NCBI GenBank assembly: GCA_023053575.1
Contig: JAKZAP010000018.1
Location: forward strand, 11,601,922 to 11,665,921
Direction of reading: 5' to 3'
Length of the DNA stretch: 64,000 bases
From: Branchinecta lynchi
Taxonomy: Eukaryota; Arthropoda; Branchiopoda; Anostraca; Branchinectidae
Part shown: positions 9,049-48,219 of the stretch, one piece after another
How positions within the stretch are numbered: position 1 is the stretch's first letter
Layout: each line of letters starts with the position of its first letter
Position numbers and translations under genes: made by a program
Notes under the pieces: generated by a model
Database searches by the model: none
The model's input: the letters and a program-made list of their open reading frames with translations, nothing else
Told to the model about the DNA's origin: nothing

Positions 9049-9109
9049 ATGGAGTCAAACTTTCCGTCTGTGACGCACGTACTGTTCGACATGGATGGTT
9101 TGCTGCTTG
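9049..9109 (+). CDS. PUDP: PUDP exon 1: start codon and HAD motif I
   Basis: ATG at 9049 begins a peptide starting MESNFPSVTHVLFDMDG and ending LLL, the usual N-terminus of this family. D14 is the predicted phosphate-accepting nucleophile and D16 the general acid/base; the hydrophobic strand VLF precedes them. The exon ends at G 9109, followed by gtatgt, leaving phase 1, so the next exon completes an Asp codon (LLL-D). The start is chosen because it gives the family-typical short leader; the context around the ATG (aaggATGG) is acceptable. A hAT-like repeat ends about 350 nt upstream at 8694. Confidence 0.93.
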
Positions 9110-10270
9110 GTATGTAACCGAATTCCTATAAACTACTCGGAGTTGCGTATCCCACATCCAAGACTAATTGGAAAAAGGCATTCTCTTCGCAGAGTGAAAA
9201 GAAATGCAGCTGTCATCTAGCAGGCACGAAAACCTAAAAGTCGAGATACCAGGCCCCGAATAAATGACGGGCAGATGGCGTCGTGAAAGCGCTCCAAGAT
9301 TCGATGTATACGCTTGTCAGACCGGACTCTCTTCTACGGATATTTTGGCTCGACTCTCTTTCTAGTCTCTAAGGCCGAGGTCCTACCCTACTCCGGAATT
9401 GACTCCGGCTAGTGTTCTGATACATTTTCCAAGAACAAACTAATAAGTTTACAGAGAAGTTGTGTGCCCGTTTTCTAACTCTGAAAGTTCTCGCAGGAAG
9501 GAAATAACGTGACAAAGGAGATGTCGCTCGGTCCCGTTTTTTTCTGTGAATTTTTCTGTTGAGGTCTAAAACTTTCGAGGAATAATGGGAGGGTCTGTAC
9601 CAGGCACACACCGAAGGTTGCTCACTTCCTGGGTTCTAAAGGTGAGTCTTCACCTTCCGGAATCTGGGTTCACAGATTTTTCGAGATTTTTTTTTTTATT
9701 TCTTCAGCGATACTTACCAATTCCGGAGATCCTGGAAGTTCAAAAGCCCTTTTTTTCCGGATTATTTTGATATACGTTTGGACCGGTTCATATTCCAGAT
9801 GCAGTTTACAGAAGACGTCAAAGAATAATCTGGAAGCCCAGATTCCGGAAGTTCCGGGAGGCGAAGACTTGACTTAGCGCTCTGTCAAATCCTACGGGCA
9901 GTCTTTTCACAGTTAAGCCCCGCCTTTCGCGTCGTTCGTAGTTGGTGCAGTCAGTGGTAAGGACTGGACAAGCAATCAGAGACGCTGTTTGTTGGCGATT
10001 TGAGTCAAGATTGCACGTCATTGGTAGTGTGCTTTTATAGTGGAAAAACATTGCGAGAGTTAGCGCATGGGGGCTGATCTGTTTTGTCTTCTTTCGGAAA
10101 ATCGGAACTGGAATGCAGCAAATGTATAGTACACCCGTGCAGTAAATCGGAACAATGAGCTCTTAAGGAATCTTTAAACATTAAAACAATACCTACCTTC
10201 CCAGTTTGGTATACTCTAAATTTGCGTTTTATTGGATGTTTTCGGTGGATTTTCAGTCTTGTTTTCTTAC

Positions 10271-10341
10271 TTCGTCTAAAAGTTTTGCTTCGTATTGGGT
10301 TCGTACGTTTGTATTTGTCCATTCCAGATACTGATATTTTA
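10271..10341 (-). CDS. Weak candidate exon, unknown gene, inside PUDP intron 1
   Basis: The acceptor tttgttttattatgacag and donor GAA|gtaaga frame 71 nt that stay open in one frame (KYQYLEWTNTNVRTQYEAK, then LLDE). Splice signals are good, but no family is recognised and the neighbouring frame is also open in places. It could be chance. Confidence 0.15.
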
Positions 10342-10705
10342 CTGTCATAATAAAACAAAGTACGTCAAACTCGGAGCAAAATAACACTAAGAAGTAGCGC
10401 CAAGACTTGACAAGATTGACATACACAACTAGCAGCGATACTAGCACCACCAGCGATAGAGAACGTCCCTACTGAATCTCATTCAGCGTTCGCCAGCGCT
10501 GACTCCGATAACTTCACATTCTGAACATAGCAAAGAATTTTGCTATGAAGAATTTTGCTGTACAGTCTCCATTTTTTTCTGGTGTGTGCATACCGCACCT
10601 TTGTTTTACTAGAAATTTCTGAACCCGCAAGTTTGTCTCGCTTAAATGCCGCAAACGTTGTGGGTGGCTCTACGAATATGGCCCGTTTGTAAAGCATGGA
10701 AAGCA

Positions 10706-11119
10706 TAGAGGCGTATTCTCGCCGTTCCCCGAGGACTTTACTTGAGGAGTCCCCGCGTTTTTGTTTGTCCCCGGGGCTCACTCCCCGTATTCTCGCGAGT
10801 CCACACGGACGGGGAATGCTCCGATTATCCTAACCATCGTCAAAAAGGACTCCCTTTCAAATTCAGAGGGGAATCAATTTTTGCTGGTGTTGGTGCAATG
10901 TAAAATTAATTAAAAACAGTCAGAATGAAGAAAACCAAAAATAAAGTGGATCCAGACTAATTTTGACAACTGCATATTTTCTTTTTCGAACAAAATCCAT
11001 TTTGGAAGCATTCCCTGTGTTCTCGTTGTTCATACGCGGAGTCCTCGTGGAGTGACTCCTTCTCGCCGTTCCTTTCGATTCCCAGAGGAGTCGTCGGGGA
11101 AAGACGAGAATATGCCTTT
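10706..11119. mobile_element. MITE with ~30-bp imperfect inverted ends
   Basis: gaggcgtattctcgccgttc at the left is mirrored by gggaaagacgagaatatgcc at the right; further cggggact/agtcc motifs are inverted inside. It ends 120 bp before PUDP exon 2a. Confidence 0.55.
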
Positions 11120-11240
11120 GGTCTACTCTGGTCAAACTATAGTGAAACTCACCCGTAAAACGCAACTTAATAGGTTGATCGGTGGTCGGAGGGGTTGGCA
11201 ATGAACGCCACTCTCGCAGCTATATAATCTGTCATTTCAG

Positions 11241-11459
11241 ACTCCGAAAAGCTGTATACAATCGTAATCGAACGGATCGCTATCAAGTATGGCCGGACTT
11301 ACACATGGGAAATGAAATCAGCACTTATGGGCCGATCCGGTCGAGATGCAGCTATGGCCCTTGTAGAAACAATAGGGTTACCTATAAGTCCAGAGGAGTA
11401 CATTACGGAAAGCCTGGATATTTTTTCTGAGGTTTTTCCATTGTGCGAATTAATGCCAG
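11241..11459 (+). CDS. PUDP: PUDP exon 2a: cap domain, version A
   Basis: The acceptor gtcatttcag precedes 11241 and the donor is G 11459 followed by gtcaga. The exon is 219 nt with phase 1 on both sides. It encodes D-SEKLYTIV, then YGRTYTWE, KSALMGRSG, GLPISPEEY, and ends LCELMPG. This is the helical C1 cap inserted between HAD motifs I and II, which closes over the active site and largely decides the substrate. Version A is closer to the general family pattern (D-[ST]-E-x-[LI]-Y, Y-x-W-x-x-K, MG[KR]). Its duplicate is 5.2 kb downstream. No exon 3 copy was seen between the two. Confidence 0.92.
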
Positions 11460-11884
11460 GTCAGAGACTGTAGACTTAGCCTAGTGCGGGAATCCTTGGC
11501 GTGGCTTTTGCTGCGCCGTAGTCTTATCGGAATTCACACAGAGGGCGTAAAAAAATCGCCAGGCAAAAATACGCCTCGCAACGTCTAGGTCAAATCGCAG
11601 GGTGTGTCAGACGGAGAATACGCCCGAATTTATTTCAGAAATATGAACAGACAAATTTAGAGAGGTGTATGGAGCCTAGAGGATTAGCTTGCTCTGCTAC
11701 AGTACAGCCCAAATCCATACAGCCTGTGTAGAGCTGGCATCTGGGCACAGCCAAGATTGAAGGGCAAGAGCTTCCTGCTGACTATACTACTGTGCTGTCC
11801 TACATGTATCTACTGTACCTTCTTCTCCGGTTCCTTGGATAATTTCTTTCCTGGCATTTTCCCTGTCCGTGTACTCCTTGATAG

Positions 11885-12632
11885 CAGGGTTGCCACATCA
11901 GAAAAATTTAGAGAGTGAATTTTGGCTGAAACAGAGAGTGAATTGGGAGTGAAATTTATTTTCATGAAAAAACGTGAAATCGTCATTTTGGTCGGAATCG
12001 CTGATGCAAAAATGTATTTCGGCGGAATCTCAATCGGTTTGGAATCTTCTAAGTATGGTGAGTTAAAAATAAATCCAATTTTTCTGTTCAGATCTCGACA
12101 TATTTGTAAATGCTGTATCATATGAAGAATAGACTATCCAGTACCATACGACTAGAATGACTCACATTACAAGATGGGTTTGGTAGGCCAAAGCGTGTCT
12201 AAACGAAAACTAGGTGTGCGAAATACTTTATTCCGACGTGCTTCCAGTTCACGTAAATAGTATGTAACACGAAATCACCTCACGTTACAGGAAAAAATAG
12301 CAATTTGGGTGCATTTGATCAATGCAAAACGTGTAATTACGCTACAATCTTTTAGAGACTCTTGCCCATGGGATGGCACTTTTCTTCTCTCCCACTGAAA
12401 CTAAAATCTGACTATTTGTGTAGTAGAGACATAGTAAAAGGCCTTACAAATACTTGCATTGAGTTGAATTCCGCGTTAATTTTTTTGTATTTTCTGGAAT
12501 TGTCACACTATTGTACGACAAATATGGACATTTTCATAGATAGAGTGAATTTTATGTCCTACATAGGACAAGAGTGACAAATTAAAAAATAGCGTGACAA
12601 TTCACACTATCGTGCGACATGTCGCAACCCTG
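11885..12632. mobile_element. hAT-like non-autonomous element, 748 bp, intact ends
   Basis: The ends CAGGGTTGCCACAT and ATGTCGCAACCCTG are imperfect inverted repeats. The flanks 11877-11884 and 12633-12640 are both cttgatag, a perfect 8-bp target duplication. The interior is AT-rich with repeated 'gagagtgaattt' motifs and no transposase. It lies between PUDP exons 2a and 2b. Confidence 0.9.
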
Positions 12633-12751
12633 CTTGATAGCAATACCATAGATTACTGGATAACTCTGAACTAGGCTAATTAGCTGTTCCACGTCCATCT
12701 CAAATTATTTGCCAGGTTGCGATTTGTTTCGGCTCGAAGCCCGACAGAGCG

Positions 12752-13910
12752 TTTTTTGGGATCCCAAAACGTAAGTGGAGGGATACCTATGACATCGCAA
12801 AAGTGGTCCGTCCGTCTGTAAGCACGATAACTCTCGAAGAGAATGAGTTGTCAGTCTGTCCGTCCGTCCGTTTGTCCGTCTGTGCGCGCTATAACTCTGG
12901 AAGGGATTGAGAAATTTTGATGAAAATTCGTGTGAAGATTCTTTAGGTCAAGAGTAAGGTCGAGTTCGTAGATGGGATCTGTAGCCGTATATTTAGGGGT
13001 GGGGGCTTAAATTAAGGGGCAAATGAAATATTTTTAAACAGATAATATGATAGTCGATTATGGGATAAGAAGACATGCTGAACACGAATCTTGAAAACCG
13101 TTTTGTCATCGGACAAGTAGTTAGCCCGGAATCCGGCCAAAACCGGAAAGTCTGTTAAAAGTAAAAGTTCTATTTGAAGTTGATTAGATGTTCGATTTAG
13201 GGGTATGAGGACATGCTGAACTCGATGCTGAAAACCATTTTCTCGCCGGACAAGTAGTTCGCCGGGAATCCGGCCAAAACCGGAAAGTTTGTTAAAAGTA
13301 AAAGTTTTATTTGGAGTTGATTAGATGTTCGATTTAGGGGTAAGAAGACATGTTGAAGACTTTTGTGAAAAAATTTCTACCCGGGCAAGTAGTTCGCCCG
13401 GAATCCGGCCAAAACCGGAAAAAGTTAAAGTTTTATTTGTAGTTGATTAGATATCCGATTTAGGGGTAAGAAGAGATGCTGAATCCCTGTATGAATATAA
13501 TTTTTTACCCGAACATATACTTTGACCGGAATCAGGCTGGAGCCCGAAAATTTGTTATAAGTTAAATTAGTATTTGAAGTTGATTAGATGTTCAGTATTG
13601 GGGAAAGAAGATACGCTGAGATCGTATTTGAGCTTTCTTTTTTCGCCGGACAAGTAGTTCCGGAATTCGTGTGAAACCGGGAAATTGGCAGAAGTGGCAG
13701 GAAGTTTTCGTCAACACAGATATGACTTGTAGGGGTAAACACGCATGCTGAATCCATATCTGAACTTGGATTTCTAGCTATTTGGCCTTAACATGTTTCT
13801 GAATTTTAATAGTAAAAATGTTCAAGGAGTCTGGCGAAGACAAGACAAGACCCAATTGTCTGGATCAAACATTGAATTTTTGGAATCCCATCGAAACATT
13901 TGGTCTTGTT
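12752..13910 (+). mobile_element. GGGATCCC composite element, copy A
   Basis: Begins ttttttgggatcccaaaac, then acgtaagtggagggatacct and a (gtccgtcc)n microsatellite. The body has about five diverged ~130-bp units (…gttgattagatgttcgattt…acatgctga…ggacaagtagttcgcc…ccaaaaccgg…) and it ends ggaatcccatcgaaac, tttggtcttgtt. No coding capacity is seen. Confidence 0.8.
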
Positions 13911-14149
13911 GTGCATGTCACAAAGTTTCCAGACCCCCCCCCCCCCCCCCCCCCCCAACTCCTCTAACCATTGTCGCATGTGGTTCTGAGACATTTCTTG
14001 CCTGTCTAGGTCATCCGTTCTTATCACCAGAAAAGTTTTACTCGAATCGGACCACCCGTTCGCAACCTACAGAAATGGTCGGATCAAGAAACGGAAGTTT
14101 CCCCGGGGCATTGTTTCAGGTCCTTAAGTCTATTTGGCTGGGTCACTAA

Positions 14150-14620
14150 TATGCTTGCCAAGTTTCATCGTCCTTAGTACATCAGGAAGTAGGCTATCCT
14201 TACTCGCGATAACCAGAATTCTGGGAAACCCCCTCCAACTCCCCCCAAAGAGTCCCGATACGGTCTAGTTCTGTCAAGAACGTATCTAGGGCTTATGTTT
14301 CCCACCAAATTCCATCCCGATCCCTCGACGCTAAGCGTTTCCAGAAAATTCTGGTGTCCCCTTCAACTCCCCCCCACAAGTATCGGATCCGGTCCGGGCT
14401 TGACGTGGAGCATCTGAGACAACATTTCTTTCCACTTGCGAAGTTTCATTCAAATCGGATCGCCCGTTCAGAAGTTATGAATGCTTTGTGAATGACTTTT
14501 GGGTGACCTGACAAGTTTCATCGTCCTAGCTTATGTGGATGTGCCCGAACTAACAAAACCTGGACAGACCGACGAACGGACAGAAATTGCGATTGCTATA
14601 TGGCACTTGGCCGAAGGGTA
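14150..14620 (+). repeat. GGCACTTGCA family, 3' fragment
   Basis: tgccaagtttcatcgtcctt and related paragraphs, ending gctatatggcacttggcc. Confidence 0.45.
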
Positions 14621-14985
14621 CCTAAAACAATCGAATGGTAATAGAACAGTCGTCTTGTAATAGATACGGACCAAACAAAACTCCGGCGAATACCAAATTC
14701 GGTAACGAATAGGAACCAAATGAATCTGATCATAAAATTATAAAATGGACTGACCGAATGCGATAGAACAGATACGGACTTGAGAAAGTCCGGTGAATGA
14801 CGGAATTCGGTAACGAATGAGACCAAATGAACACGTCAAATTACAAAATTTACGAAGGGACGGACCGAATGCAGTGAAGTCCATGCGGACCGAACAAATG
14901 TTGGATGAATAACCAAATTCGATAAAGGTTGGGAACCAACAATCACGTGAAATCACCCAATTTGGAAATGTGGGGACAAATGATT
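14621..14985 (-). repeat. ~115-bp tandem family, array 1
   Basis: Three units of the type 'accgaatgcgatagaacaga … gtccggtgaatgacggaatt … cggtaacgaatgagacca'. Confidence 0.6.
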
Positions 14986-14993
14986 TTTATAAA

Positions 14994-15030
14994 ACGGGCA
15001 TCACGCCTTCGCCGCGATGCCCGTTTCGAC
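14994..15030. repeat. Hairpin AAACGGGCATC/GATGCCCGTTT
   Basis: An 11-bp perfect stem with a 13-nt C/G-rich loop between the 115-bp array and a G-tract/C-tract palindrome. Confidence 0.6.
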
Positions 15031-15289
15031 CGGAATTTTCGACTACGGCGAAAATTTGACAGAATTCCCAAACTTTAGGGGGGGGTCGCCCCCCCCCCCC
15101 CTCGGGACGCCACTGGTCAAGGAGTGAAGACAATTTAGTAAGTGAAAATGCATTTCTGGAAATAAAATTCGGGCGAGCTCGCTCACGTCTGTCATACCCT
15201 GCGATTTCGCTTAGACGTCGCGAAGTGTATTTTTGCCTGCCAATATTTAGACGCCCTCTGTGTGAATTCCTCTTTAGTCAAAGGAATGC

Positions 15290-15367
15290 AAATTCCTGCA
15301 AATTTTGTATGTTTCGGGGGGGGGGGGGGTCAGCCCCCCCCCCCCCCGCCCCTGGATACGGCCTTGT
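15290..15367. mobile_element. CCGTATCCAGG-family MITE, truncated copy
   Basis: Only the end gcccctggatacggccttg and the adjoining homopolymers (G11, C15) remain; the other end is missing. Confidence 0.6.
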
Positions 15368-15494
15368 TTCACCGTGTTTCGGCGAATGCTGCGTCTAGGA
15401 AAGCCACGTCATGTTTTCCATCTAGAATATATAATCCTGCATGAGATAGTATGTCTTCGCATTACCATCGTGCAACCATAGCCTGCGGTGACTA

Positions 15495-15664
15495 CACTGT
15501 AAAAAGTTTCTCCGAGTAACGATTAAAGTTAACTGCAGTATCTGCTACTAGGATTAATCTTGTCTCTACTGAGATAAGATTAATCCGAATTAGAGATAAG
15601 ATTATCTTTTTAGAGACAAGATTAATCCCAGTAGCAAATACTGCAAGATGTTTTTTTAGAGAGT
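15495..15664 (+). mobile_element. CACTGT MITE (TA target), copy 1
   Basis: About 170 bp beginning CACTGTAAAAAGTTTCTCCG, with nested palindromes around ttaatcttatctctactgag and a poly(T) end (tgcaagatgttttttt). The preceding TA fits a TA target. It lies between PUDP exons 2a and 2b. Confidence 0.8.
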
Positions 15665-16281
15665 ATTCAGTTCCAAACTTCTGTGAGAGCCGATACTTGT
15701 ATCCGAACTACCACACCTTCGACCTACTTAACTCGTTTTCGATAACCTCTATAACGCCACCTGCTCTTTTGAACAAATAATCAGACAAACCTAGCTTAAT
15801 CATTCTTCTACATATAAAAATGTTAACATCCCTTCCATTTAAACTATAAAAAAAATTGTCACCACAAAAACTACAGATACATTTCTAGTTGAAAATCAGA
15901 CTACAGTAGCCTATTTACTTTTGAGACTAAATAGGTACTATAAACTATAATGTAAACAGTCCAAAATAAATTGCTATTGCTAAATCTGAAAGCTTCGTGG
16001 GATGACGAGAAAAATAAATTACTTATATTGACTAATACCGAAAATCAAATAAATAATTTCTTAAGATAATCGGTATTAAAAATTGGCGCAGTAAGATTCG
16101 GGTTCGTGGATCTGGGGATACCGTAAAACAAAGCCGAACCACCCGAAGAAACTCCATCGAAAGCGGAAGAGTTTCACAGACTAGGATTAAGTTGGACAAA
16201 GGGGGCAACCAATTATCTGGAGCTGTCTCGAGTCACGCCCACGATTTTCGGGAAGGCTCGTGATTTTTATTATTTAAATTA

Positions 16282-16447
16282 CACTAAAAAAAATCTTGAA
16301 GGATTTGCTACTGGGACTAAGCTTGTCTTTATTGAGATAAGATTATCTATAATCCGGATTAATCTTATCCCAGTAGAGATAAGATTAATCCCCGTAGCAA
16401 ATACTGCAGTTAACTTTAATCCTTACTTGGAGAAACTTTTTACAGTG
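16282..16447 (-). mobile_element. CACTGT MITE, copy 2
   Basis: Reverse orientation: begins cactaaaaaaaatcttgaag and ends gagaaactttttacagtg, with TA on both sides. It is 230 bp upstream of PUDP exon 2b. Confidence 0.85.
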
Positions 16448-16679
16448 TAAGATACGACCTACTAGGGTCGAACACAGACAAAATAAGTAACAAACACTGG
16501 CATAAATATAAACTACAAATGAAATTAAACAAAATTTCAGCACATCAACCTGGAGAAACCCCCATTTTGCCACGTCGTATTGTCTGAAGATATAGCTTCT
16601 CCTGCAGGATTATGGTTGATGATCGTCTGTACTTGTTTATATCATTTGTGTGCCCTCTTTGTCCTTTTTTCTTCCTCAG

Positions 16680-16898
16680 ATACTGAGATAATATATACCC
16701 GTGTTACCGAGGAGATAGCAGCTCGCTATGGCAAAACTTACCCTTGGGAAGTCAAGCTCAAACAAATGGGAAGGACTGCCCCGGAACTAGCCAAGGTCAT
16801 CGTTCAGGAACTGGACTTGCCACTCTTACCTTGCGAATATACAGTCGAAGCAAAAGTGATGCAAGAGAAAATGTTTCCAACCTGCAAACTGCTGCCAG
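16680..16898 (+). CDS. PUDP: PUDP exon 2b: cap domain, version B (alternative or mutually exclusive exon)
   Basis: Same length (219 nt) and same phase 1-1 as exon 2a, with a strong acceptor (cctttttt-cttcctcag) and donor (G then gtatac). It encodes D-TEIIYTRV, YGKTYPWE, KQMGRTAPE, LDLPLLPCEY, and ends CKLLPG. By eye about 32 of 74 positions match exon 2a, and no position needs a gap. Shared residues are the family-conserved ones (D-x-E, YG-TY-WE-K, MGR, LP, P-EY-E, FP-C, L-PG), while the loops between differ. There is no stop, frameshift or repeat inside. Equal length and conserved borders after so much divergence indicate selection on both versions. Because both exons are symmetric, skipping one or including both keeps frame. 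Confidence 0.88.
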
Positions 16899-16920
16899 GT
16901 ATACCGACAGCTATTCGAGC

Positions 16921-17040
16921 GCCGAACGTTTGAGTCTTCATCTACGGAACTAGTGGCGCGTAATTTTCAGTCGTCGCTCGTAATGTCAGTGGCAATACAC
17001 TCTGTAGTTGCGTTTCTGATCGAAGTTTGGCTTAGCCGGT
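16921..17040 (+). pseudogene. Possible decayed copy of PUDP exon 3
   Basis: Starting 23 nt after exon 2b, one frame reads AERLSLHLRN and then a stop; exon 3 begins AERLVRHLKS. Further on, MSVAIHSVV recalls exon 3 IAVATSSSS, with the nucleotides cagtggcaa shared, and the segment ends cggt where exon 3 ends aggt. The preceding AG is one base out of phase and an intron of about 22 nt would be too short, so it cannot be spliced as it stands. It may be a remnant of a duplication that once covered exons 2 and 3 together. The match is short and judged by eye. Confidence 0.35.
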
Positions 17041-17889
17041 TGCTTAATTTCTGTTTTCGAGCGCTGTCGAAGTCCACCGTTCACTTAATTAGTGTTTTAC
17101 GAGTCCGACTTGCACGTCCGCCGTTTCTTCAACGTTTCAAGCAAACTTGGAACTAGCTAGCTCACGAATTTAGACGTCCAGAGTTTGAAGGACGAAGAAA
17201 CTGAGACCGGCGACCAAAAACGATACTTGAACGAAGGTAACTTCAAACTTCGATCAAAAATGAAACTTGTGATTCTTCTTCAGGATTGTAATGTTGTCAA
17301 TTTCACTTTAGAGCTAAAACCGAGGCTTTCTACGTAATGTCATAAGCACCGGATAAGCTTTCCGGAACTGGAATCTTCCTCAGAGAGAAGAAAGGGGTGC
17401 TCAAAAGTAACGGCGCTCGATTTGCGATGGTAAAGTCAGAGTTCTTGATATGTCCTAACAAGATGTCTGAGCTTGACTAACACTGTTAAATGTCTTTTGT
17501 AGCAAAATCAGTAGTCGCTACTCCGTCTTGAAGCTTAAGTTTAGCACATGTATTTTGTTATACCGTTGTGGACTCGAACGGGTTTCCATAGCAAGTTTAT
17601 GCCCCCCCCCCCCCTCCCGGTTTCTAAGCAATATGGAAGGATCGAATTTCGCTGAAAGTAGGAATTTCAGTAAAGAAAAATAATTTTCACTTGCGGCGCA
17701 CTTTGTGTTGTCATTTGCCATTTTGTGTTGGAGACAATTACTTCAACCGCTACCCTTTCCGCAAAATTAGAAGCATGTTCCACCCTTCTTACATCAGTTA
17801 CTATGCTAACCGTTCCTTCTCGAAATCGTAAGCCACACAGTAAGCGTGGTAACCACGATCTCAATGTGTGACACAAATGGCAGGATACT

Positions 17890-18075
17890 CTTGATGACTT
17901 GCTGATGCAAAATCTCCGGCCTCTCCGGGTAGCTAGCGGAAGAAAGGCAGAAATGGTGTCGCTGCTGCTGCCAAAGATCGCGGTGATTGATTGACACAGG
18001 ATTTGAGTCGTTGAGTTTGAGTCGTACGGACACGCTGGCGTGTTTTGGACTTAGTCATGTAGAGTATTAGCGAAT
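17890..18075 (+). repeat. Intronic duplication, copy 1
   Basis: aaaatctccggcctctccgg and the following ~180 bp are repeated at 18370-18570, immediately before PUDP exon 3. Confidence 0.75.
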
Positions 18076-18369
18076 GGCGCGATACTTTGCTGAAAGTAGA
18101 AAAATTGTTGAAGCCAAGAAGCCGTGACATCATGCGTAGTTACTGCGGTAAGTAGGGTGGAAGACGACCTAAGTAACTGGCCTATTGTCCATGATGCGTT
18201 CCGACCTCCTACCTAAGGTTAGTAAAAGCTGCAATCGTCGTTACAACTGTATGAAGCGATATTCAAACTGAAATGACGTTGGTAGTTTTTAATAATTATA
18301 CGGGGGTTGATAGACCCCTCTAGTGGCGTTATTCTGAACTGGCTACCGATGTACCAAGCTGATGCTAAT

Positions 18370-18570
18370 AATCTTGATGACTATCTGTCCTTGCCGATGT
18401 AAAATCTCCGGCCTCTCCGGGTACCTAGCGGAAGAAAGTCAGAAGTGGTGTCACATCTGCTCCCAAAGATCGCCGTGATTGCTTGACTCAGGATTTGAGT
18501 CGTTACGGAGACGATTAATCCTTCTTCCTGAGGATCACTGGCGTGTTTTAGTCATATAGAGTATTCATGT
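18370..18570 (+). repeat. Intronic duplication, copy 2, adjoining PUDP exon 3
   Basis: taaaatctccggcctctccg, tcagaagtggtgtcacatct and ggcgtgttttagtcatatag match copy 1 with scattered changes and small indels. Confidence 0.75.
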
Positions 18571-18574
18571 TTAG

Positions 18575-18677
18575 GCGCTGAGCGACTGGTGCGTCATCTC
18601 AAGTCGAAGGGTGTCCCTATAGCAGTGGCAACAAGCAGTAGCTCTGAGACGTTCCATATGAAAACGACGAACCACAG
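18575..18677 (+). CDS. PUDP: PUDP exon 3: HAD motif II
   Basis: The acceptor (tattcatgtttag) precedes 18575 and the donor is AG followed by gtaaac. The exon is 103 nt and encodes G-AERLVRHLKSKGVPIAVA, then TSSSSETFHMKTTNHR. The strand VPIAVATSS carries the motif II Thr/Ser that binds the phosphoryl group. The codons split at both ends match their neighbours: G from exon 2 (either version) and AG|G (Arg) into exon 4. The 200 bp in front of it are duplicated at 17890-18075. Confidence 0.92.
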
Positions 18678-19516: not shown

Positions 19517-19646
19517 GGAATTTTTTGAAATATTTGATCACATCGTCTTCGGGAGCTCCGAACCGGAGCTGAAGCACGGAAAACCAGCCCCCGACATTTT
19601 CCTCCTGTGTGCCAGCAGATTCCCAGATAAGCCTGCCCCGGAAAAG
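19517..19646 (+). CDS. PUDP: PUDP exon 4: HAD motif III
   Basis: The acceptor tttctttctttag precedes 19517 and the donor is AAG followed by gtaagc. The exon encodes EFFEIFDHIVFG, an acidic link SSEPELKH, then GKPAPDIFLLCASRF and PDKPAPEK. GKP-x-PD is the motif III loop whose Lys (K150) stabilises the phospho-aspartyl intermediate. The sequence aligns closely with the family; no odd residues. Confidence 0.94.
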
Positions 19647-19981
19647 GTAAGCTGACCCAAGAACAGGCAGGGGGGATTTCAAGTGCCTGGGGTCCGACGG
19701 TGAAGACCCAGAGAGCGTGTTCCACCCTACTTACCATAGTTACTACGCATGAAGTCACGGGTCAGGGCTGGAACGAATTTTCGGCAAAATACCTTGCCGC
19801 GGGTTGTCGGACTAATCACGTCACAGAGATCGTAGTTACCAGTTACACGCATAGAGTTACTAGATCCGAAAGATCACATTTCATTCGATGAAATCCGTTA
19901 TCTGTGGACAGCGGACAAACGGAGTAACGAATTTTTATCGGATTTTCAGGGCTATTTAAGCGAATACGTGATGTGTAACTA

Positions 19982-20148
19982 CAGTGTAAAAAGTTACTCC
20001 GAGTAAGGATAAAAGTTAATGGCAGTATTTGCTACTGGGATTAATTTTATATCTACTGGGGTAAGATTAATCCGCATTAGAGATAATTTTATCTCAACAG
20101 AGACAAGGTTAATCCCAATAGCAAATCCTGCAAGATTTTTTTTTAGTG
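19982..20148 (+). mobile_element. CACTGT MITE, copy 3
   Basis: cagtgtaaaaagttactccg to tttttttagtg, with TA flanks. It lies in PUDP intron 4. The 64 bp following it are the reverse complement of the 64 bp preceding copy 2. Confidence 0.8.
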
Positions 20149-21189
20149 TAGCTTAAATAAAAAAAAATAATAAAAATCACGAGCCTTCCCGAAAATCGTG
20201 GGCGTGACTCGAGACCTATCGACGCAGTATCCCCGTGATATCGATATCTGTCCTGCACACGGGTACTTCGTCGGCTTATTTGTAGAGACAAAAAGATCGG
20301 AAGGCACATAGGAAGAGTCCTTTGCAAGCCACGCCTACTGGTAACGCAAATGCAAGTCTGACCAAATTACCGAAGAGAGTAAAATGAACAGACTAAAGAG
20401 CGACGTGGCAATACTTTTGATTCCACCCTTCGAACAATAGTAACTATTTCATTCCAACCTCGTAAAATGTTACTACGCTGACCGTTCCAACCGTCTCGAA
20501 ATAGTAACTAATGTAACTATTTGCTTACGATGCTCAGGAGTGTAGTAAGCGTGGTAACTACGCATCTCTGTAACGTGATTGGTCGGATTCGCCAGTGCGT
20601 CATGGGAGCTGAGTTTCGAAAGAGCCACCGGATCTTGATAGCGGGAACCTTAACTGACATGAATGGATGAATTTTATTTGTAACCCGTCACACCGTTACA
20701 GGAAACAAGATGATGATGACATTTTATTTACGCACTTAAGAAGAGGAAAATAGTGCATTATAGACAAAGAAATGGAAAAAATACACTAAGCTTTCAATAA
20801 TGTAGTAAATGCACGAGATCATAAAATAAAAATTTAAAAAAAAGAAAAAAAGGGACTAATCGGGTCTAAAAAATCTTCTTCCTAGATGGAGTGCGGAGAA
20901 ATGGCCAAGGGCAGAAACGTGAAGGTCTTGGGCAATCGAAGATAACTTTCCACAATGGTCAGAGGGCAAAAAAGTTGCAGCTATACGGGAATTCCTATAA
21001 CGTCGAGGAAGGTACAAGAGAAATTTACAATAAATGAAATAAAAAGTCCTGATATGTTTTAAATCTCTTCGCCTCGGAATACCAAAAATTCCGGAATGGT
21101 TGTAGACAGAGGGAGGACAAAAACTATTATATAAACTACCAAGGGCTTTCCTGTTATACCTTCCTCTATTCGGAACTATTTTTCCATAT

Positions 21190-22086
21190 CCGACACGAAT
21201 AGGATCGTGAACAGCCGAAACAGCGTTATCGCAGATTTTGACTAGTGGTTTCCAAAATCCATCGGGTTTGGAAACTACTGACGTTTACGTTGGTAATAGA
21301 GTCATGCCCATCTAGCTGGTCAAGTGCGGCTTTTCGGGAAAGCGGATCTGATATGCCGGCAGGAGAGTTGTCAACGATTATTTTAACAGCATCGGAGTAT
21401 GAGGGCATGTGGTTGCGATGGGCTGATTTGTTGCCGGCTGTTGACATTTTTGGCTGAGTGTTAGACAAGTTATCCATCGAGAAAAGTCACTCAGACATAA
21501 GTTTGACTTCGTTGACACAGGTAGTGATTTGGCAGGAAAGGGTGGCAAAGGCTGAAGCCAGGATTGGTCACCAAAAATAACTTCGTACACCCTGGAAAGT
21601 ATCCCAAAAGTATCTCAAAGTAACCCAATGTAACCTAACGTAACCCAAAGTAACCCAATGCAATGTAATCCAAAGTAACCCATTGTAACCAAAAGAAACC
21701 CAAAGTAACCCAAAGTATCCTGAAGTAACTCGTACACCCTGGTTCTTGGTGACCAACCCTGGGGTTGAAGCTGGGATGAACGGTACCTCACTTGGAGACT
21801 TGATCACGAAATCAGGCAGAGAGACATCGTCTTCATCGCAGCGAGTGAAGGCAGCGAGAACATCGGTAGCATGAGCCGACGCAGCGTTGGGACCTGAACG
21901 ACGTGGGACAGGATCCTGCGGAAAAGCCTTCTTCCAAAGTAGGCGCTTTGCAGCCAAAATAGCTGCCTCAGGAAAAAACTCTACAGCGTATTGAGCAATG
22001 CTGTCATGGCCGATTCCCTTTTCGAAATTATCTTGCAAGAAGTTCAATACAGGGTCGTAGAAAAGCACAGCCAAATGGCCAACCAA
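21190..22086 (-). pseudogene. Retroelement ORF1-like protein, interrupted by a MITE and broken
   Basis: From the ATG at 22086 about 105 codons look genuinely coding (DPVLNFLQDNFEKGIGHDSI, AAKRLLWKKAF, RRSGPNAASAHATDVLAAF, VSLPDFVIKSPSEVPFIPAS). The type, a small helical N-terminal domain with a basic linker and an SLP-x-FV motif, occurs widely upstream of retroelement polymerases in marine and other invertebrates. At 21763-21559 a 0.2-kb insertion adds a W/G/L-rich frame and a stop. After it the original protein resumes (LASAFATLSCQITTCVNEVK, then MDNLSNTQPKMSTAGNK) until a further stop near 21226. It sits in PUDP intron 4, antisense, beside composite element copy B. Retroelement origin is inferred. 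Confidence 0.5.
21559..21763. mobile_element. hAT-like MITE with a TAACCCAAAG minisatellite core, inserted in ORF1
   Basis: The ends CCAGGATTGGTCACCA and TGGTGACCAACCCTGG are inverted repeats, continued by cgtacaccctgg near both ends. The flanks gctgaagc and gttgaagc are near-identical 8-mers, as expected for an 8-bp target duplication (two extra G at the right). The interior (21600-21725) is a degenerate tandem array of a roughly 10-bp unit, taacccaaag. Confidence 0.6.
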
Positions 22087-22234
22087 ATGGCCAACATGGC
22101 CAACTGCCAGGTTTTGGATTCCAAGTACACACGGTCACTTTTTGACAGTTGAAGCTTGAAACCGATAATTATCAAACTGAAACGGAGATTGCGACCGTTC
22201 AGCTCAACGGTCAAACCAAGACTGTGAGTAAAAA

Positions 22235-23599
22235 AACAAGACCAAAGGTTTCGATGGGATCCCAAAAATCTAATATTTGATCCTGACAATTGCGAACGAA
22301 CTACCATACTTGTCCAGAAAAAAAAAGTTCAGAAACGAATTCAGCGTATCTGCTTATCCGTATAAAGAACATCTAATCAACTTCAAGTAAAAGTTTAACT
22401 TATAAAAAAAAATCCGGTTTCAACCGGATTCCAAACGAACTATATGTCCAAGTAAAAAAAAAAGATTGTCATATACAGATTCAGCGTGTCTTCTTACCCC
22501 TAAATCTGTCATCTAATCAACTTCAAATAAAACTTTTGCTTTTAACAAATTTTCCGGTTTGGCCTGATTCCGGCCGAACAAGTTGTCGTGGTAGAAAATA
22601 CTGTTGCCATAAGGGTTCAGCATGTCTTCTTACCCCTTAATCGAACATCTAATCAACTTCAAATAAAACTTTTACTTCGAACAAACTTTCCGGTTTGGCC
22701 GAATTCCGGGCGAACTACTTGCCCGGAGAGAAATGGTTTTCACCATCGTGTTCAGCATGTCTTTTTATCCCTAAATCGAACATCTAATCAACTTCAAATA
22801 AAGCTTTTACTTTTAACAGACTTTCCGGTTTTGGCCGTATTCCGGGCTGACTACTTGTACGGCGAACAAATGTGTTTCACCATCATCTTCAGCATGTCTT
22901 CTTATCCCTAAATCGAACATCTAATCAACTTCAAATAAAGCTTTTACTTTTAACAGACTTTCCGGTTTTGGCCGTATTCCGGGCTGACTACTTGTCCGGC
23001 GAACAAATGTGTTTCACTATCATCTTCAGCATGTCTTCTTATCCCTAAATCGAACATCTAATCAACTTCAAATAAAGCTTTTACTTTTAACAGACTTTCC
23101 AGTTTTGGCCGTATTCCGGGCTGACTACTTGTCCGGCGAACAAATGTGTTTCACCATCATCTTCAGCATGTCTTCTTATCCCTAAATCGAACATCTAATC
23201 AACTTCAAATAAAACTTTTACTTTTAACAAACTTTCCGGTTTTGGCCGGATTCCGGGCGAACTGCTTTTCCGATGACAAAATGGTTTTCACCATCGTGTT
23301 CAGCATGTCTTCTTACCCTATAATCGACTATCGCATTAGCTGTTTAAAAATATTTTGTTTGCCCCTTAATTTGAACCCCCTCCCCCACCCCTAAATGTGG
23401 GGCTACATAGCCCATCTAAGAACTTGACCTTACTCTTGACCCAAAACATTCCTCACACCAAGTTTCATCAAAATATCTCATTCACTTCGAGAGTTATAGT
23501 GCGGACAGACGGACGGACGGACAGACGGACGGACGGACAGACGGACAACTTTTGTGATGTCATAGGTATCCCTCCACTTACGTTTTCGGATCCCAAAAA
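22235..23599 (-). mobile_element. GGGATCCC composite element, copy B (expanded units)
   Basis: Reverse orientation, aacaagaccaaaggtttcg to cttacgttttcggatcccaa. It has about eight units. Three consecutive units around 22745-23160 are nearly identical, indicating recent expansion, and a (gacg)n-type tract lies at 23503-23550. Confidence 0.85.
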
Positions 23600-23639
23600 G
23601 AAGAAGGAAATGGCACGCTATATACACTAACTACCCTCT

Positions 23640-23935
23640 ACTAGTGCTATTTGAGCTTTCAGCTCTGGTTGTTATGATCATTAGCATGGTCTCACGTGTT
23701 TTGTACTAATGAATTACTAATTACTTACTCAGTTTCAAATTAAGGAGTCTGATTGTTTAGGTTATTTTTTGTTTTTGTTTGTTTGTGTATTTGTTTTTCT
23801 TGTACGTGATTTTTTGTGGTAGTTGCTATGGCCAGTTGGCTTTTTGCAGTAAATATCATATCAAAATATCATATCATATATGGCCCTTGGGCTTTTGAAA
23901 TACACTGATCTATCTATCTATCTATCTTTATTGAA
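23640..23935. mobile_element. Tail-to-tail retroelement 3' ends with (atatc)n and (atct)n
   Basis: On the plus strand a retroelement 3' UTR containing ctatggccagttggc ends in atatcatatc repeats at 23856-23880. The same kind of ending (gcgatggccctcgggct, then atatcatatc) closes the LINE at 56341-56775. Immediately after it, (atct)4 followed by ttattgaagcg is the reverse of an aataaa-(agat)n tail, so a second element lies on the minus strand with its tail against the first. Confidence 0.45.
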
Positions 23936-24390
23936 GCGCATGCTACGGACAGAGCAGATTATTAGTTTTTGTTGTCATAAAATAAACATGCTAGTCAGTC
24001 CACGAGTCAAAATTAACATACACAAAATTACAGTGTATACAATTAATAACTATTTGCAGATTAAAAAACCGACCCGGCATTAAACAACTTAACAAGGAGG
24101 CCACAAAACTAAGCTCACGTCGACACTCAAAGCAGTCACAGCTTGAAGTTTCGGAACAGGCTCTGTAACGGACCTGATTGGCCTTACACGTGCCCGTCGA
24201 TGCTGGGGCGGGAGGATATTTCGGTGAACAGGGCTCTACAGGATTTTATCACCAAAATAGCGAGAGTTTTAAAAGAGTGAAGGCTTTAAAATTGAAACTG
24301 ATTAAGGAAGGATATGTTTTTTCTTACTTAATTAAGAAACCAAAATTATATATTGCCTGAAGATTATATAAAGTAATAGTATATTATACT

Positions 24391-24861
24391 GGTCATATAA
24401 TTTCTCTCAAAGAAAAATTACGGAAGACTTACGGAATGTTAGCACGAACTAAAGGCCAATTTGATAAAATTACGCTTGGCCGTCTATGCAACGCCATGTT
24501 CGCGCCCCATCTCTTCTTTCTACCTCTGTGGAATACATTGAATAAAACTGGGCGTAAACAAGTCCGTTCTAATTTTTTCCGGTACTGCAAAAATTTACTG
24601 GGAATTCCCATATGGTTCCAAAACTCTTACGTATCGCAAAGGTATAATAAATCTGAAATGATATGGACGCCAAGTAGTTTAAGCTCGATCTCACGGCTAG
24701 CGCTGGGAATAATTGGGTTAGAAGCTGGCGTGGATTTAAAAAAAGAAATGGTTAAAATTACAGATTTGTCACAGTTACAGTCATTTTGCTCACCTTTGCC
24801 TCTCTTTGGGTCAGTACGTACAAAATTTATTCACTCACCCAATCGGTTTGTTGGCGCATAG
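24391..24861 (+). pseudogene. LINE-type reverse transcriptase C-terminal fragment
   Basis: The frame reads LKEKLRKTYGMLARTKGQF, then NAMFAPHLFFLPLWNTLNKT, then RKQVRSNFFRYCKNLLGIP and IWFQNSYVSQRYNK. The order 'upper loop, L-W, x-N-K-T-x-R-K-Q, F-R-Y-C-K-x-L-L-G-(I/L)-P' resembles the thumb region at the end of non-LTR retrotransposon polymerases. An open stretch at 24184-24357 (ending LIKKPKLYIA) probably belongs to it. No catalytic FADD motif is present. It lies in PUDP intron 4, sense to the gene. Confidence 0.45.
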
Positions 24862-24979
24862 AGAAATCGGGAATTGCACAGTCGGCTCATGGCTGCTTGG
24901 AGATGATTATAGGCCGACATTTCTCCTATATTGTTATGAGTCCCAGCCGCTGGTACATAGGCTTTTCTCTCTTTTCCAG

Positions 24980-25159
24980 TGCCTAGTCTTCGAAGACGCA
25001 CCTAACGGTGTAACCGCCGCTTTAGCCGCTGGTATGCCGGTCGTCATGGTCCCCGACGCACGGATGGACGATCATAATCAAGGCCGAGCCACACTCTGCC
25101 TCGACGACCTACGCGACTTCAAGCCTGAGTTGTTCGGCCTACCTCCGTTCGACGACTGA
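24980..25159 (+). CDS. PUDP: PUDP exon 5: HAD motif IV and C-terminus
   Basis: The acceptor ctcttttccag precedes 24980 and the stop is TGA at 25157-25159. It encodes CLVFEDAPNGVTAALAAG, then MPVVMVPDARMDD, and ends FKPELFGLPPFDD. E176 and D177 are the predicted Mg2+ ligands of motif IV. The ending ELFGLP-x-(F/Y) is characteristic of the HDHD1/GS1-like family and supports the assignment over other HAD phosphatases. An AATAAA lies 6 nt after the stop. Confidence 0.95.
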   Translation, partial: CLVFEDAPNGVTAALAAGMPVVMVPDARMDDHNQGRATLCLDDLRDFKPELFGLPPFDD

Positions 25160-25164
25160 TTTTA

Positions 25165-25170
25165 AATAAA
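25165..25170 (+). terminator. Polyadenylation signal of PUDP
   Basis: An AATAAA hexamer five bases after the TGA stop. If used, the 3' UTR would be very short (tens of bases). Confidence 0.5.
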
Positions 25171-31083: not shown

Positions 31084-31679
31084 TTGTAGGTACTACTTGC
31101 TTCAGCTGGAAGAAGTCCGTGATGACCGAGGATGACATGGGTTACGATTTCTTCCAAGAACTCCTAATGCTAGTGTACTACACTATCACAAGTCTCACAT
31201 TAGATAACACAAGGATGCGCGGTTTCAACAGATAACACTTAGGATGTTAGCTGTTATGTTTTCAAAGGTTACGCATTAAAAGGTCTTCCATACAAAAAGA
31301 GCCGAAACACCGCCGCGACATTTGTTCAGATATTTAATGTCTGCTGGCTTTTCTATTTTGTCATCATGATATCGGAGAAGTTACTAGATTTTCTGGCGGT
31401 TTCTCAGCTCTTCCTGACAATGCTTGTTCTGCACAACGTTTTAATGCATAACGTTTGGAACATCCTAGGCGTTATCCCATGAAACCTGTTGATAAACACC
31501 GCGTGTTGCGCCACACAGCTTATTATACCTACTTGTACATAGCTTAAGACTCATTCACAGCGGGTTTTAGCCAGTACTTGGTACCAGCTGGCTCTGAAAA
31601 TCGCTCCGAGACCGAGACTTCGCCTGGTTTGTGACGTTCGCAATGGATACTGGGGTCAGTTTCGGGTAGCAGTTAGACC

Positions 31680-32093
31680 ATGACGGAACGCAGTTTTGGA
31701 TCTCGACCAACCCGCTACCTAGCAATTATTTGTTATTACTTATTGTCTCTTCTTATTACTAGAGTTTCGAGACAGTATCGGGGTCTTTGTGCGCGTGCTA
31801 ACCATTTAATTCGTAATATTAAATTTTGTACTGTGTCGGTGAGAACTCTTTTATTTAAGACGTATTGCACGCAACTATATTGTCTCCCACTTTTTGATAA
31901 CTATCTTGAAACGACGATGCGTAAACTAAAAGTTTGTTTTAACAATGCATTCCGTCATCTCCTTTCATACAATCGACGTTACTCTGCTAGTCAAATGTTT
32001 TTAGAAAATGAAACTGAATCTTTTGATGTTATGAGACGGAAAGCGATAGTTAGTTTTGTTGCAAGGGTAGAAGTTTCCGAAAATCCACTTTAA
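31680..32093 (+). pseudogene. LINE (CR1/L2-like) reverse transcriptase C-terminal remnant
   Basis: Reads RANHLIRNIKFCTVSVRTLL, then FKTYCTQLYCLPLFDNYLET, then MRKLKVCFNNAFRHLLSYNR, FDVMRRKAIVSFVARV and ENPL. This follows the family signature F-K-(S/T)-Y-C-x-x-L-Y, R-x-L-x-V-x-(Y/F)-N-N-x-x-R-x-L-L and (F/L)-D-x-x-R-R-K seen at the end of many non-LTR retrotransposon ORF2 proteins. Only the last ~110 residues survive; the catalytic palm is absent. The 3' UTR runs to an aataaattaattgattgatt tail at 32262-32286, a typical short-repeat LINE tail. Confidence 0.75.
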
Positions 32094-47323: not shown

Positions 47324-47868
47324 TTAAAGAGGCGACCCTCTATCCGTCACTAGAGACATAGGGGTCGGAAGGTCTATGGAAGTGTTAAGAGTTTCGATTC
47401 GGGGTAAGCCGTCTGCAAGAATGCCGCTGGCTGGCATATGATGAAATAAATTCGTTATATTTATTTCCTTCGAGGCCTGGGGATCGTGGACCGTTTTCGC
47501 GTGGTGTTTCAACTTATCCGGACGTGAAAACTCGCGGCCGCATAAAAGGCACGGAAACACCTTCCTCTGATTCCCCTCATGGTAGAGATAGGCATGTCGC
47601 TGGAAGCTGTACTTATTCTTAAAGGTTCGCGCGATCTGATCTTTCTCACAGGGCAAGCACTTATAAACGCCATCTTCTGAAACGGTGGCGTACTTGAACA
47701 AATTCAGGCCTCGGATAGACATTTCTTGGAGTTGCTCCGTTTCGTTGGGGGAGGTGTCAAGCACGGCCCCGCCCAGCTCCTCCGTTTTGACCATTGGCAA
47801 TGAAGCGACACGGATTCGGCCGGGTTTGATTGGTTTTCGAATTCTGGTGACGCCCAACAGCTGACCAC
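47324..47868 (-). CDS. Terminal exon with two C2H2 zinc fingers (BTB-ZF / lola-like architecture inferred)
   Basis: The acceptor gaaatgtgttgcag precedes 47868 and the stop is TAA at 47324-47326. The exon opens GQLLGVTRIRKPIKPGRIRV, followed by a PMVKTEE linker. Finger 1 is KCLPC-x17-H-x4-H (CLPCEKDQIARTF, then NKYSFQRHAYLYH), with five extra residues in the loop. Finger 2 is canonical, C-x2-C-x12-H-x4-H (PCLLCGREFSRPDKLKHH, then AKTVH). A tail of about 45 residues follows. A two-finger module on one 3' exon after a shared splice site is the pattern of arthropod lola/fru-type genes, where alternative terminal exons change DNA specificity. No BTB exon was found in the window; it would lie to the right. 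A pair of MITEs begins just past the stop. Confidence 0.7.
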
Positions 47869-48219
47869 CTGCAACACATTTCTTGTAAGTCTTTTTCTTT
47901 CAGGTGAGTGAAAAGGGACAAAAACAAAGTCGTCTCCACCCTCCAGCTTCAGTTTCAACTTTAAAGCTCACGGCGACTTTGATTTTCCAGCCCTGATTCC
48001 TCAAGCTTGAATACAGAAACGCATTGTTTTCAATCCCTACTTTGGCTCTTGAAACTGTTTTTTAACACAGATCCTGGCAAAGTTTCTGTCCACAGCGCTT
48101 TTAATTTTACAAATATTTCATGTTTCTACGGGTTCGCGATTTCCAACTGACCCCTCCTAGCGAATCAAATACGACTGAAAACGCTACTCCAAACTGATGC
48201 CTGAAAACCTTCGTCCAAA

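What the first reader, a model, noticed from the sequence alone, without database searches (positions are those of the whole stretch)
11241..16898. Phosphatase gene with two interchangeable cap-domain exons
Exons 11241-11459 and 16680-16898 are both exactly 219 nt, both phase 1-1, both with good splice sites, and both complete the same Asp codon from exon 1 and Gly codon into exon 3. They are only about 43% identical by eye, yet neither has a stop or frameshift. In HAD phosphatases this segment is the C1 cap between motifs I and II, which contacts the leaving group and sets specificity; the catalytic Asp, Thr/Ser, Lys and Glu-Asp are all in the shared exons. Mutually exclusive splicing would give one catalytic core with two substrate profiles. 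I know of no description of this for PUDP/GS1-like genes, though I cannot search. Facts seen: exon lengths, phases, motifs. Inferred: alternative use and specificity change.
Basis: partly seen in the sequence, partly recalled or inferred. Interest (0 to 1): 0.87.

Follow-up and report, generated by a model that had tools for sequence, protein, structure and literature searches.

The report
Phosphatase gene with two lid exons
In a genome that likely belongs to a relative of the brine shrimp, one pseudouridine-5'-phosphatase-type gene carries two different versions of the exon that codes for the lid over the active site; they are likely spliced in as alternatives to give two enzymes with one catalytic core, an arrangement already cloned from a fruit fly and suggested by gene models of many other arthropods.

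Summary
Exon 1 (9049-9109), two 219-nt cap exons 2A (11241-11459) and 2B (16680-16898), and exons 3-5 (18575-18677, 19517-19646, 24980-25159) form a complete PUDP/HDHD1-type HAD phosphatase gene; either cap gives an open 230-residue protein. Genome-wide search found only these six exons, so no second gene copy was found for 2B. Each cap is conserved with its own Artemia counterpart (53/73 and 57/73 identical, 32-34/73 across). Crayfish, lobster, shrimp and Daphnia models show identical or near-identical cores with different caps. Alternative use is thus well supported by relatives, but no RNA of this species was available; strict mutual exclusion is not shown (both or neither also stay in frame), and a substrate switch is inference. 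Not new in kind: Hopkins et al. 2018 (PMC5953924) cloned the same swap from Drosophila montana Gs1l. I found no print on its extent: 28 of 192 retrieved homologues, from 19 arthropod species, have two to four caps before one core (a list biased to such proteins); an A/B split may predate the branchiopod-insect divergence (support 85/82, not conclusive).

The parts
9049..9109 (+). Exon 1, coding part from ATG; motif I (FDMDG) with the catalytic Asp; ends in phase 1
   Evidence: Translation and GT donor; the only motif-I match in the window, by pattern and by profile (E 7e-11; next 0.5)
11241..11459 (+). Exon 2A: C1 cap version A, 73 codons, phase 1-1
   Evidence: cap profile E 2.4e-29 (profile includes the window's caps); 53/73 identical to Artemia cap A
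16680..16898 (+). Exon 2B: C1 cap version B, 73 codons, phase 1-1
   Evidence: cap profile E 1.4e-31 (same caveat); 57/73 identical to Artemia cap B
18575..18677 (+). Exon 3: core, motif II (ATSS)
   Evidence: 29/35 identical to Artemia
19517..19646 (+). Exon 4: core, motif III (GKPAPD)
   Evidence: 37/43 identical to Artemia
24980..25159 (+). Exon 5: core, motif IV (FEDAPNG), stop codon
   Evidence: 45/59 identical to Artemia
25165..25170 (+). AATAAA, likely polyadenylation signal
   Evidence: Sequence; use is inferred

Best explanation
This PUDP/Gs1l-type phosphatase gene has two homologous cap exons that are likely spliced as alternatives between the same exon 1 and exons 3-5, so that one catalytic core would be fitted with either of two lids. 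Shown: the exon pair with matching length and phase, one motif-I exon and one core in the window, no other matching gene found in the assembly, and conservation of each cap with its own counterpart in Artemia. Inferred from relatives: that both caps are used, mostly one at a time. Inferred from general knowledge of HAD enzymes (C1 caps line the active site; recalled, not from a call): that the two isoforms differ in substrate preference or turnover. Reading frame does not enforce exclusion: A+B (303 aa) and neither (157 aa) are both open.
For: Equal length and phase, good splice sites, all combinations in frame. One motif-I and one core segment in the window; genome-wide the A+B protein matches six places, all in this gene, and Artemia paralogue P0004 five places, all in this gene. 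Like-with-like conservation: A 53/73, B 57/73, exons 3-5 111/137; across types 32 and 34 of 73. Isoforms with different caps share a core: Procambarus 4 proteins and Panulirus 4 proteins 137/137, Penaeus 2 proteins 137/137, Cherax 5 proteins 136-137/137; D. pulex X3 against D. pulicaria X2 core 136/137, cap 31 identical residues. Artemia has a model with cap A alone (P0011) and one with A+B (P0001). D. montana Gs1l cDNA clones hold exon 2 alone or exon 3 alone (PMC5953924).
Against: No transcript of this species was seen. No B-only Artemia protein was in the best 120, though its query was the B isoform. Both-cap models occur in 28 of the 192 proteins, and Artemia P0160 carries both caps in an otherwise disturbed model. 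The Artemia P0001/P0011 models lack the motif-I exon. No complementary intron segments of the docking kind were found. The shared-core evidence for Daphnia is between species.
Confidence: 0.75

Rival explanations
1. Both caps are normally included together, giving a 303-residue tandem-cap phosphatase; single-cap forms are minor.
Against: Many of these are automatic gene models, which can chain alternative exons. In D. montana the short single-cap clones were the most common; of 12 long clones 9 kept the intron with a stop codon and the authors suspected the other 3 as artefacts. Human and most retrieved relatives have one cap (104 of 192 one cap, one core).
Confidence: 0.15
2. The two caps are alternatives, but the isoforms have the same substrate and turnover; the swap serves expression control or is neutral.
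For: Of 13 cap positions conserved in at least 75% of 71 caps, A keeps 11 and B all 13. The D. montana authors concluded from homology models that the exon-2 and exon-3 forms should be practically equivalent, and saw different cold responses of the two exons.
Against: A and B differ at 42 of 73 positions, and the stretch after the invariant G31 differs by class but is kept within classes: A-type MGxxGR[ED] in 4 of 4 (window, Artemia, D. pulex, D. magna), B-type MG[RK][TI]AP[DE]LA in 4 of 4 (window, Artemia, ArtemiaX1, P0007), insect second caps GTxE in 9 of 11 (read).
Confidence: 0.35
3. Exon 2B is the remnant of a second, truncated PUDP gene copy, or a dead exon.
For: Artemia has a paralogue (P0004) whose only cap is of the B type.
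Against: No second motif-I or core segment in the window and no other matching place in the assembly. 2B is open, has strong splice sites and is 57/73 identical to its Artemia counterpart, which lies in the same protein model after cap A.
Confidence: 0.03

Closest known systems
Drosophila montana Gs1l alternative exons 2 and 3 (Hopkins et al. 2018, PMC5953924)
   Same: PUDP/HDHD1 homologue; two alternative exons code the cap (residues 25-94 there, 21-93 here) between shared N-terminus and core; single-cap and both-cap forms.
   Different: There the rest of the protein is described as one exon 4, here exons 3-5. There cDNA was cloned; here only genomic DNA. Whether the two exon pairs go back to one duplication is open: no D. 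montana cap was in my trees.
Multi-cap PUDP gene models of Artemia, decapods and insects
   Same: Two to four caps of about 73 residues before one core; window A and B each pair with an Artemia cap at 73% and 78%.
   Different: Decapods have four starred cap classes and a fifth without its own support; the window has two caps. These are models, not proven proteins.
Human PUDP/HDHD1 (9m7l, 3l5k)
   Same: Best solved relatives of both isoforms over residues 7-128 (130.6 bits for A, 121 for B).
   Different: One cap. By the fly paper's account, human isoform differences lie at 20/21 and 51-93, which suggests that introns flanking the cap are old (inference).
Mutually exclusive exon clusters (Dscam and the like)
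   Same: Tandem homologous exons of equal length and phase between constant exons.
   Different: Exclusive use is not shown here; no complementary 18-mers link intron 1 or the 2B-3 intron to any other intron of the gene.

Membership tests
HAD phosphatase with C1 cap, PUDP/HDHD1 type | Motifs I (DxDG), II (T/S), III (K) and IV (ED) | tested here: met
   FDMDG, ATSS, GKPAPD, FEDAPNG in exons 1, 3, 4, 5; Pfam PF00702 and PF13419 over cut-off for both isoforms. Motif roles are recalled.
HAD phosphatase with C1 cap, PUDP/HDHD1 type | Cap inserted between motifs I and II; nearest solved relative is PUDP | tested here: met
   human PUDP far above the next hits (for A 130.6 bits against 50.2; for B 121 against 40.7)
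HAD phosphatase with C1 cap, PUDP/HDHD1 type | Hydrolysis of pseudouridine 5'-phosphate | not testable with these tools
   Needs assay
Mutually exclusive exons | Adjacent homologous exons of equal length and phase between shared exons | tested here: met
Mutually exclusive exons | One and only one exon in each transcript | not testable with these tools
   No RNA of this species; in relatives both-cap models and clones exist
Gs1l-type alternative cap exons (D. montana) | Alternative exons spanning the cap between motif I and the core of a PUDP homologue | tested here: met
Gs1l-type alternative cap exons (D. montana) | Same ancestral duplication as the insect pair | tested here: inconclusive
   Branchiopod B-type caps + insect second caps 85/82, not starred, 73/75 with fewer rows, and a branchiopod-own duplication not rejected, p-AU 0.392; no D. 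montana cap in the trees

The most novel reading that the evidence does not exclude
Arthropod PUDP is a natural cap-swapping enzyme: a cap exon between two old phase-1 introns was duplicated before branchiopods and insects parted, then again separately in decapods (about five cap classes), lepidopterans and ticks, so that one HAD core is fitted with different lids, perhaps sometimes several in tandem, to act on different phosphate esters: a small Dscam-like array in a metabolic enzyme.
Probability: 0.3. Interest if true: 0.8.

Novelty: new member of a known kind. Interest (0 to 1): 0.55.

Why it matters
In HAD phosphatases the cap is thought to set substrate choice while the core does the chemistry. 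A gene that keeps one core and two conserved caps (about five cap classes in decapods) offers natural isoforms that differ only in the cap, so that idea can be tested directly. It also marks this gene as a place where cap-exon duplication seems to have happened more than once in arthropods, while the only description that I found concerns one fly.

Tried and rejected
Second gene copy: not found (the genome tool scores only its best candidates). Chance open frames: rejected. Intron pairing that could enforce exclusion: exact complementary 18-mers among five introns occur only within the A-B intron and between it and the 19647-24979 intron, where repeats lie; none involve intron 1 or the 2B-3 intron. 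Counterpart of Artemia's other N-terminus in the window: no convincing match.

Age of the A/B split: cap trees have 73 columns. First tree: 71 caps from 56 of the 192 proteins plus the window, after 20 identical caps were merged and 3 left out (two partial, one a near-copy). An anostracan-own duplication is not rejected (p-AU 0.106), nor a branchiopod-own one (p-AU 0.392). A quick tree of 167 caps, with 60 double-domain or odd proteins dropped, showed two Daphnia caps near B. With those two and three more added, and the long Blattella cap 1 and the same 3 left out (75 rows): B-type with Daphnia second caps and P0105 95/75; B-type with Daphnia second caps but without P0105 is not a clade in the best tree (p-AU 0.372 when forced); Daphnia second caps with A-type p-AU 0.079; B-type plus insect second caps 85/82. 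These groups were named after seeing a tree, so the supports are leads.

The search with cap B alone returned 25 proteins of 56 candidates, too few to rank insect caps. dN/dS: not done, no DNA of a relative was reached. The HAD match is another protein (245-codon open frame in L002). Literature: searches listed one paper on alternative cap exons in a PUDP/Gs1l gene; several lists were capped and the library holds open-licence papers only. Hatje & Kollmar 2013 on Drosophila exons is not held and may list Gs1l. Species: not identified; 575,737,328 bases in 216 contigs; nearest proteins Artemia, whose A. franciscana assemblies are 0.85-1.27 Gb (PMC11492255, passages); Branchinecta is a guess from recall, its genome papers are not held.
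Full report
What is there. The window holds a complete gene on the + strand: exon 1 9049-9109 (coding part), exon 2A 11241-11459, exon 2B 16680-16898, exon 3 18575-18677, exon 4 19517-19646, exon 5 24980-25159, all with GT-AG introns, and an AATAAA at 25165-25170. With 2A or 2B the product is 230 residues, with both 303, with neither 157; all are open. Motif I lies in exon 1, II in exon 3, III in exon 4, IV in exon 5; the pattern scan found one match each for I, III and IV, and for the loose motif-II pattern two further chance matches. The best solved relatives of both isoforms (exons 1-3) are human pseudouridine-5'-phosphatase 9m7l and 3l5k.

The two exons. Equal length and phase, same Asp and Gly codons completed, 31/73 identical as protein and 109/219 as DNA. 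Of the 219-nt AG...GT segments open in that frame in 9110-18574 there are three: these two and one overlapping 2B in another frame.

No second gene found. Profiles of the motif-I segment, the cap and the core, built from homologues, find one, two and one sets in the window; the next matches are at noise level (the cap profile includes the window's own caps, which does not weaken the negative result). In the whole assembly (575,737,328 bases, 216 contigs) the A+B protein matches six places, the six exons of this gene, and the Artemia paralogue P0004 matches five places, all in this gene. The tool scores only its best candidates, so a distant paralogue could be missed. One other HAD gene was seen and is different.

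Both caps are kept. Against A. franciscana P0001, cap A is 53/73 identical, cap B 57/73, exons 3, 4 and 5 29/35, 37/43 and 45/59; across types, window A to Artemia B is 34/73, window B to Artemia A 32/73, Artemia A to B 33/73. So A and B parted before this species and Artemia did, and both have since been held about as tightly as exon 5. That is evidence of use; dN/dS was not possible.

Relatives. Two protein searches (best 120 of 6036, best 120 of 6562) gave 192 distinct proteins; the second query was the A+B form, so the list favours multi-cap proteins. By profile, 104 have one cap and one core, 50 are full double-domain proteins, 21 have two caps and one core, 6 three, 1 four (Homarus P0140), and 10 other orders. 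The 28 multi-cap single-core proteins come from 19 named species: Artemia; the decapods Palaemon, Macrobrachium, Cherax, Procambarus, Panulirus and Homarus; six dipterans; a beetle; a cockroach; a stick insect; two lepidopterans; a tick (names as). Many are automatic models, which can chain alternative exons, so they show arrays of cap exons better than they show tandem-cap proteins. Stronger is that isoforms with different caps share one core: Procambarus 4 proteins and Panulirus 4 proteins 137/137, Penaeus 2 proteins 137/137, Cherax 5 proteins 136-137/137, Artemia P0001/P0011 140/140. D. pulex X3 and D. pulicaria X2 share 136/137 of the core but 31 cap residues; D. magna and D. carinata X1 133/137 and 32; these pairs are between species and rest on isoform names. 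Artemia P0004 is a separate paralogue (core 99/137), and P0160 is a disturbed model (core 18/140 without gaps).

History of the caps. In the first cap tree (71 rows, 73 columns) window A joins Artemia A and two Daphnia caps (99/93*), window B joins Artemia cap 2, Artemia X1 and P0007 (99/93*); nine insect second caps with two single caps form one group (99/98*); both lepidopteran pairs fall in one lepidopteran clade (100/99*); the tick pair falls in a tick clade (96/93*); decapods show four starred cap classes and a fifth without support of its own. With Daphnia second caps added, B-type rows with P0105 join (95/75), A-type rows join (99/78), and B-type plus insect second caps are one side of a branch (85/82). 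This fits an old A/B split with later separate duplications, but 73 columns cannot settle it; the AU tests in the smaller set reject neither a branchiopod-own (p 0.392) nor an anostracan-own duplication (p 0.106).

Function. Of 13 cap positions conserved in at least 75% of 71 caps, A keeps 11 (S2 and R19 differ) and B all 13; the stretch after the invariant G31 differs by class and is kept within classes. With the general role of C1 caps in HAD enzymes (recalled), a change of substrate or turnover is plausible; the fly paper argued for equivalence from homology models. I put it at somewhat better than even odds.

What is known. Hopkins et al. 2018 (PMC5953924; abstract and outline, passages, sections 8 and 6 whole) cloned Gs1l cDNAs of Drosophila montana with exon 2 alone, exon 3 alone, both, and both with a retained intron; 9 of 12 long clones kept the intron, and the other 3 may be artefacts by their account. 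In eight searches of an open-licence library I saw no other paper on it and none on crustaceans. By that paper's account human isoforms differ between residues 20 and 21 and at 51-93, which matches the cap-exon borders here and suggests old flanking introns (inference).

Verdict. A real, conserved pair of alternative cap exons in a PUDP gene with no second copy found; a new member of a known kind, with a wider and possibly ancient arthropod history that I did not find described.

Noticed in passing
P0001 and P0011 (Artemia franciscana X2, X5): Both models start with a different N-terminus (MVWYIPGLYTEPLQNK) and lack the motif-I exon with the catalytic Asp: an alternative first exon or a model error. 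No convincing counterpart in the window.
   Followed up: partly
50 of the 192 proteins: Full double-domain PUDP-like proteins (cap-core-cap-core), among them named tick, copepod (Eurytemora), Clunio and hemichordate (Ptychodera) entries.
   Followed up: no
window 15493-15656 with 16286-16449; 11529-11613 with 15186-15270: Two inverted-repeat pairs in the A-B intron (164 nt, 88% and 85 nt, 85% complementary), the second starting 70 bases after the 2A donor and able to loop out much of the intron; likely mobile-element copies.
   Followed up: partly
window 47324-47899, minus strand: 191-codon open frame with a weak C2H2 zinc-finger match just under the Pfam cut-off.
   Followed up: partly
window 24361-24861 and 31677-32093: Open frames that look like ends of LINE-type reverse transcriptases (by eye, recalled); the first has no Pfam match, the second was not searched.
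   Followed up: partly
window 13934-13956, 15089-15101, 15316-15329, 15334-15347, 17602-17614 and elsewhere: Runs of 12 or more C or G; 22 in the window.
   Followed up: no
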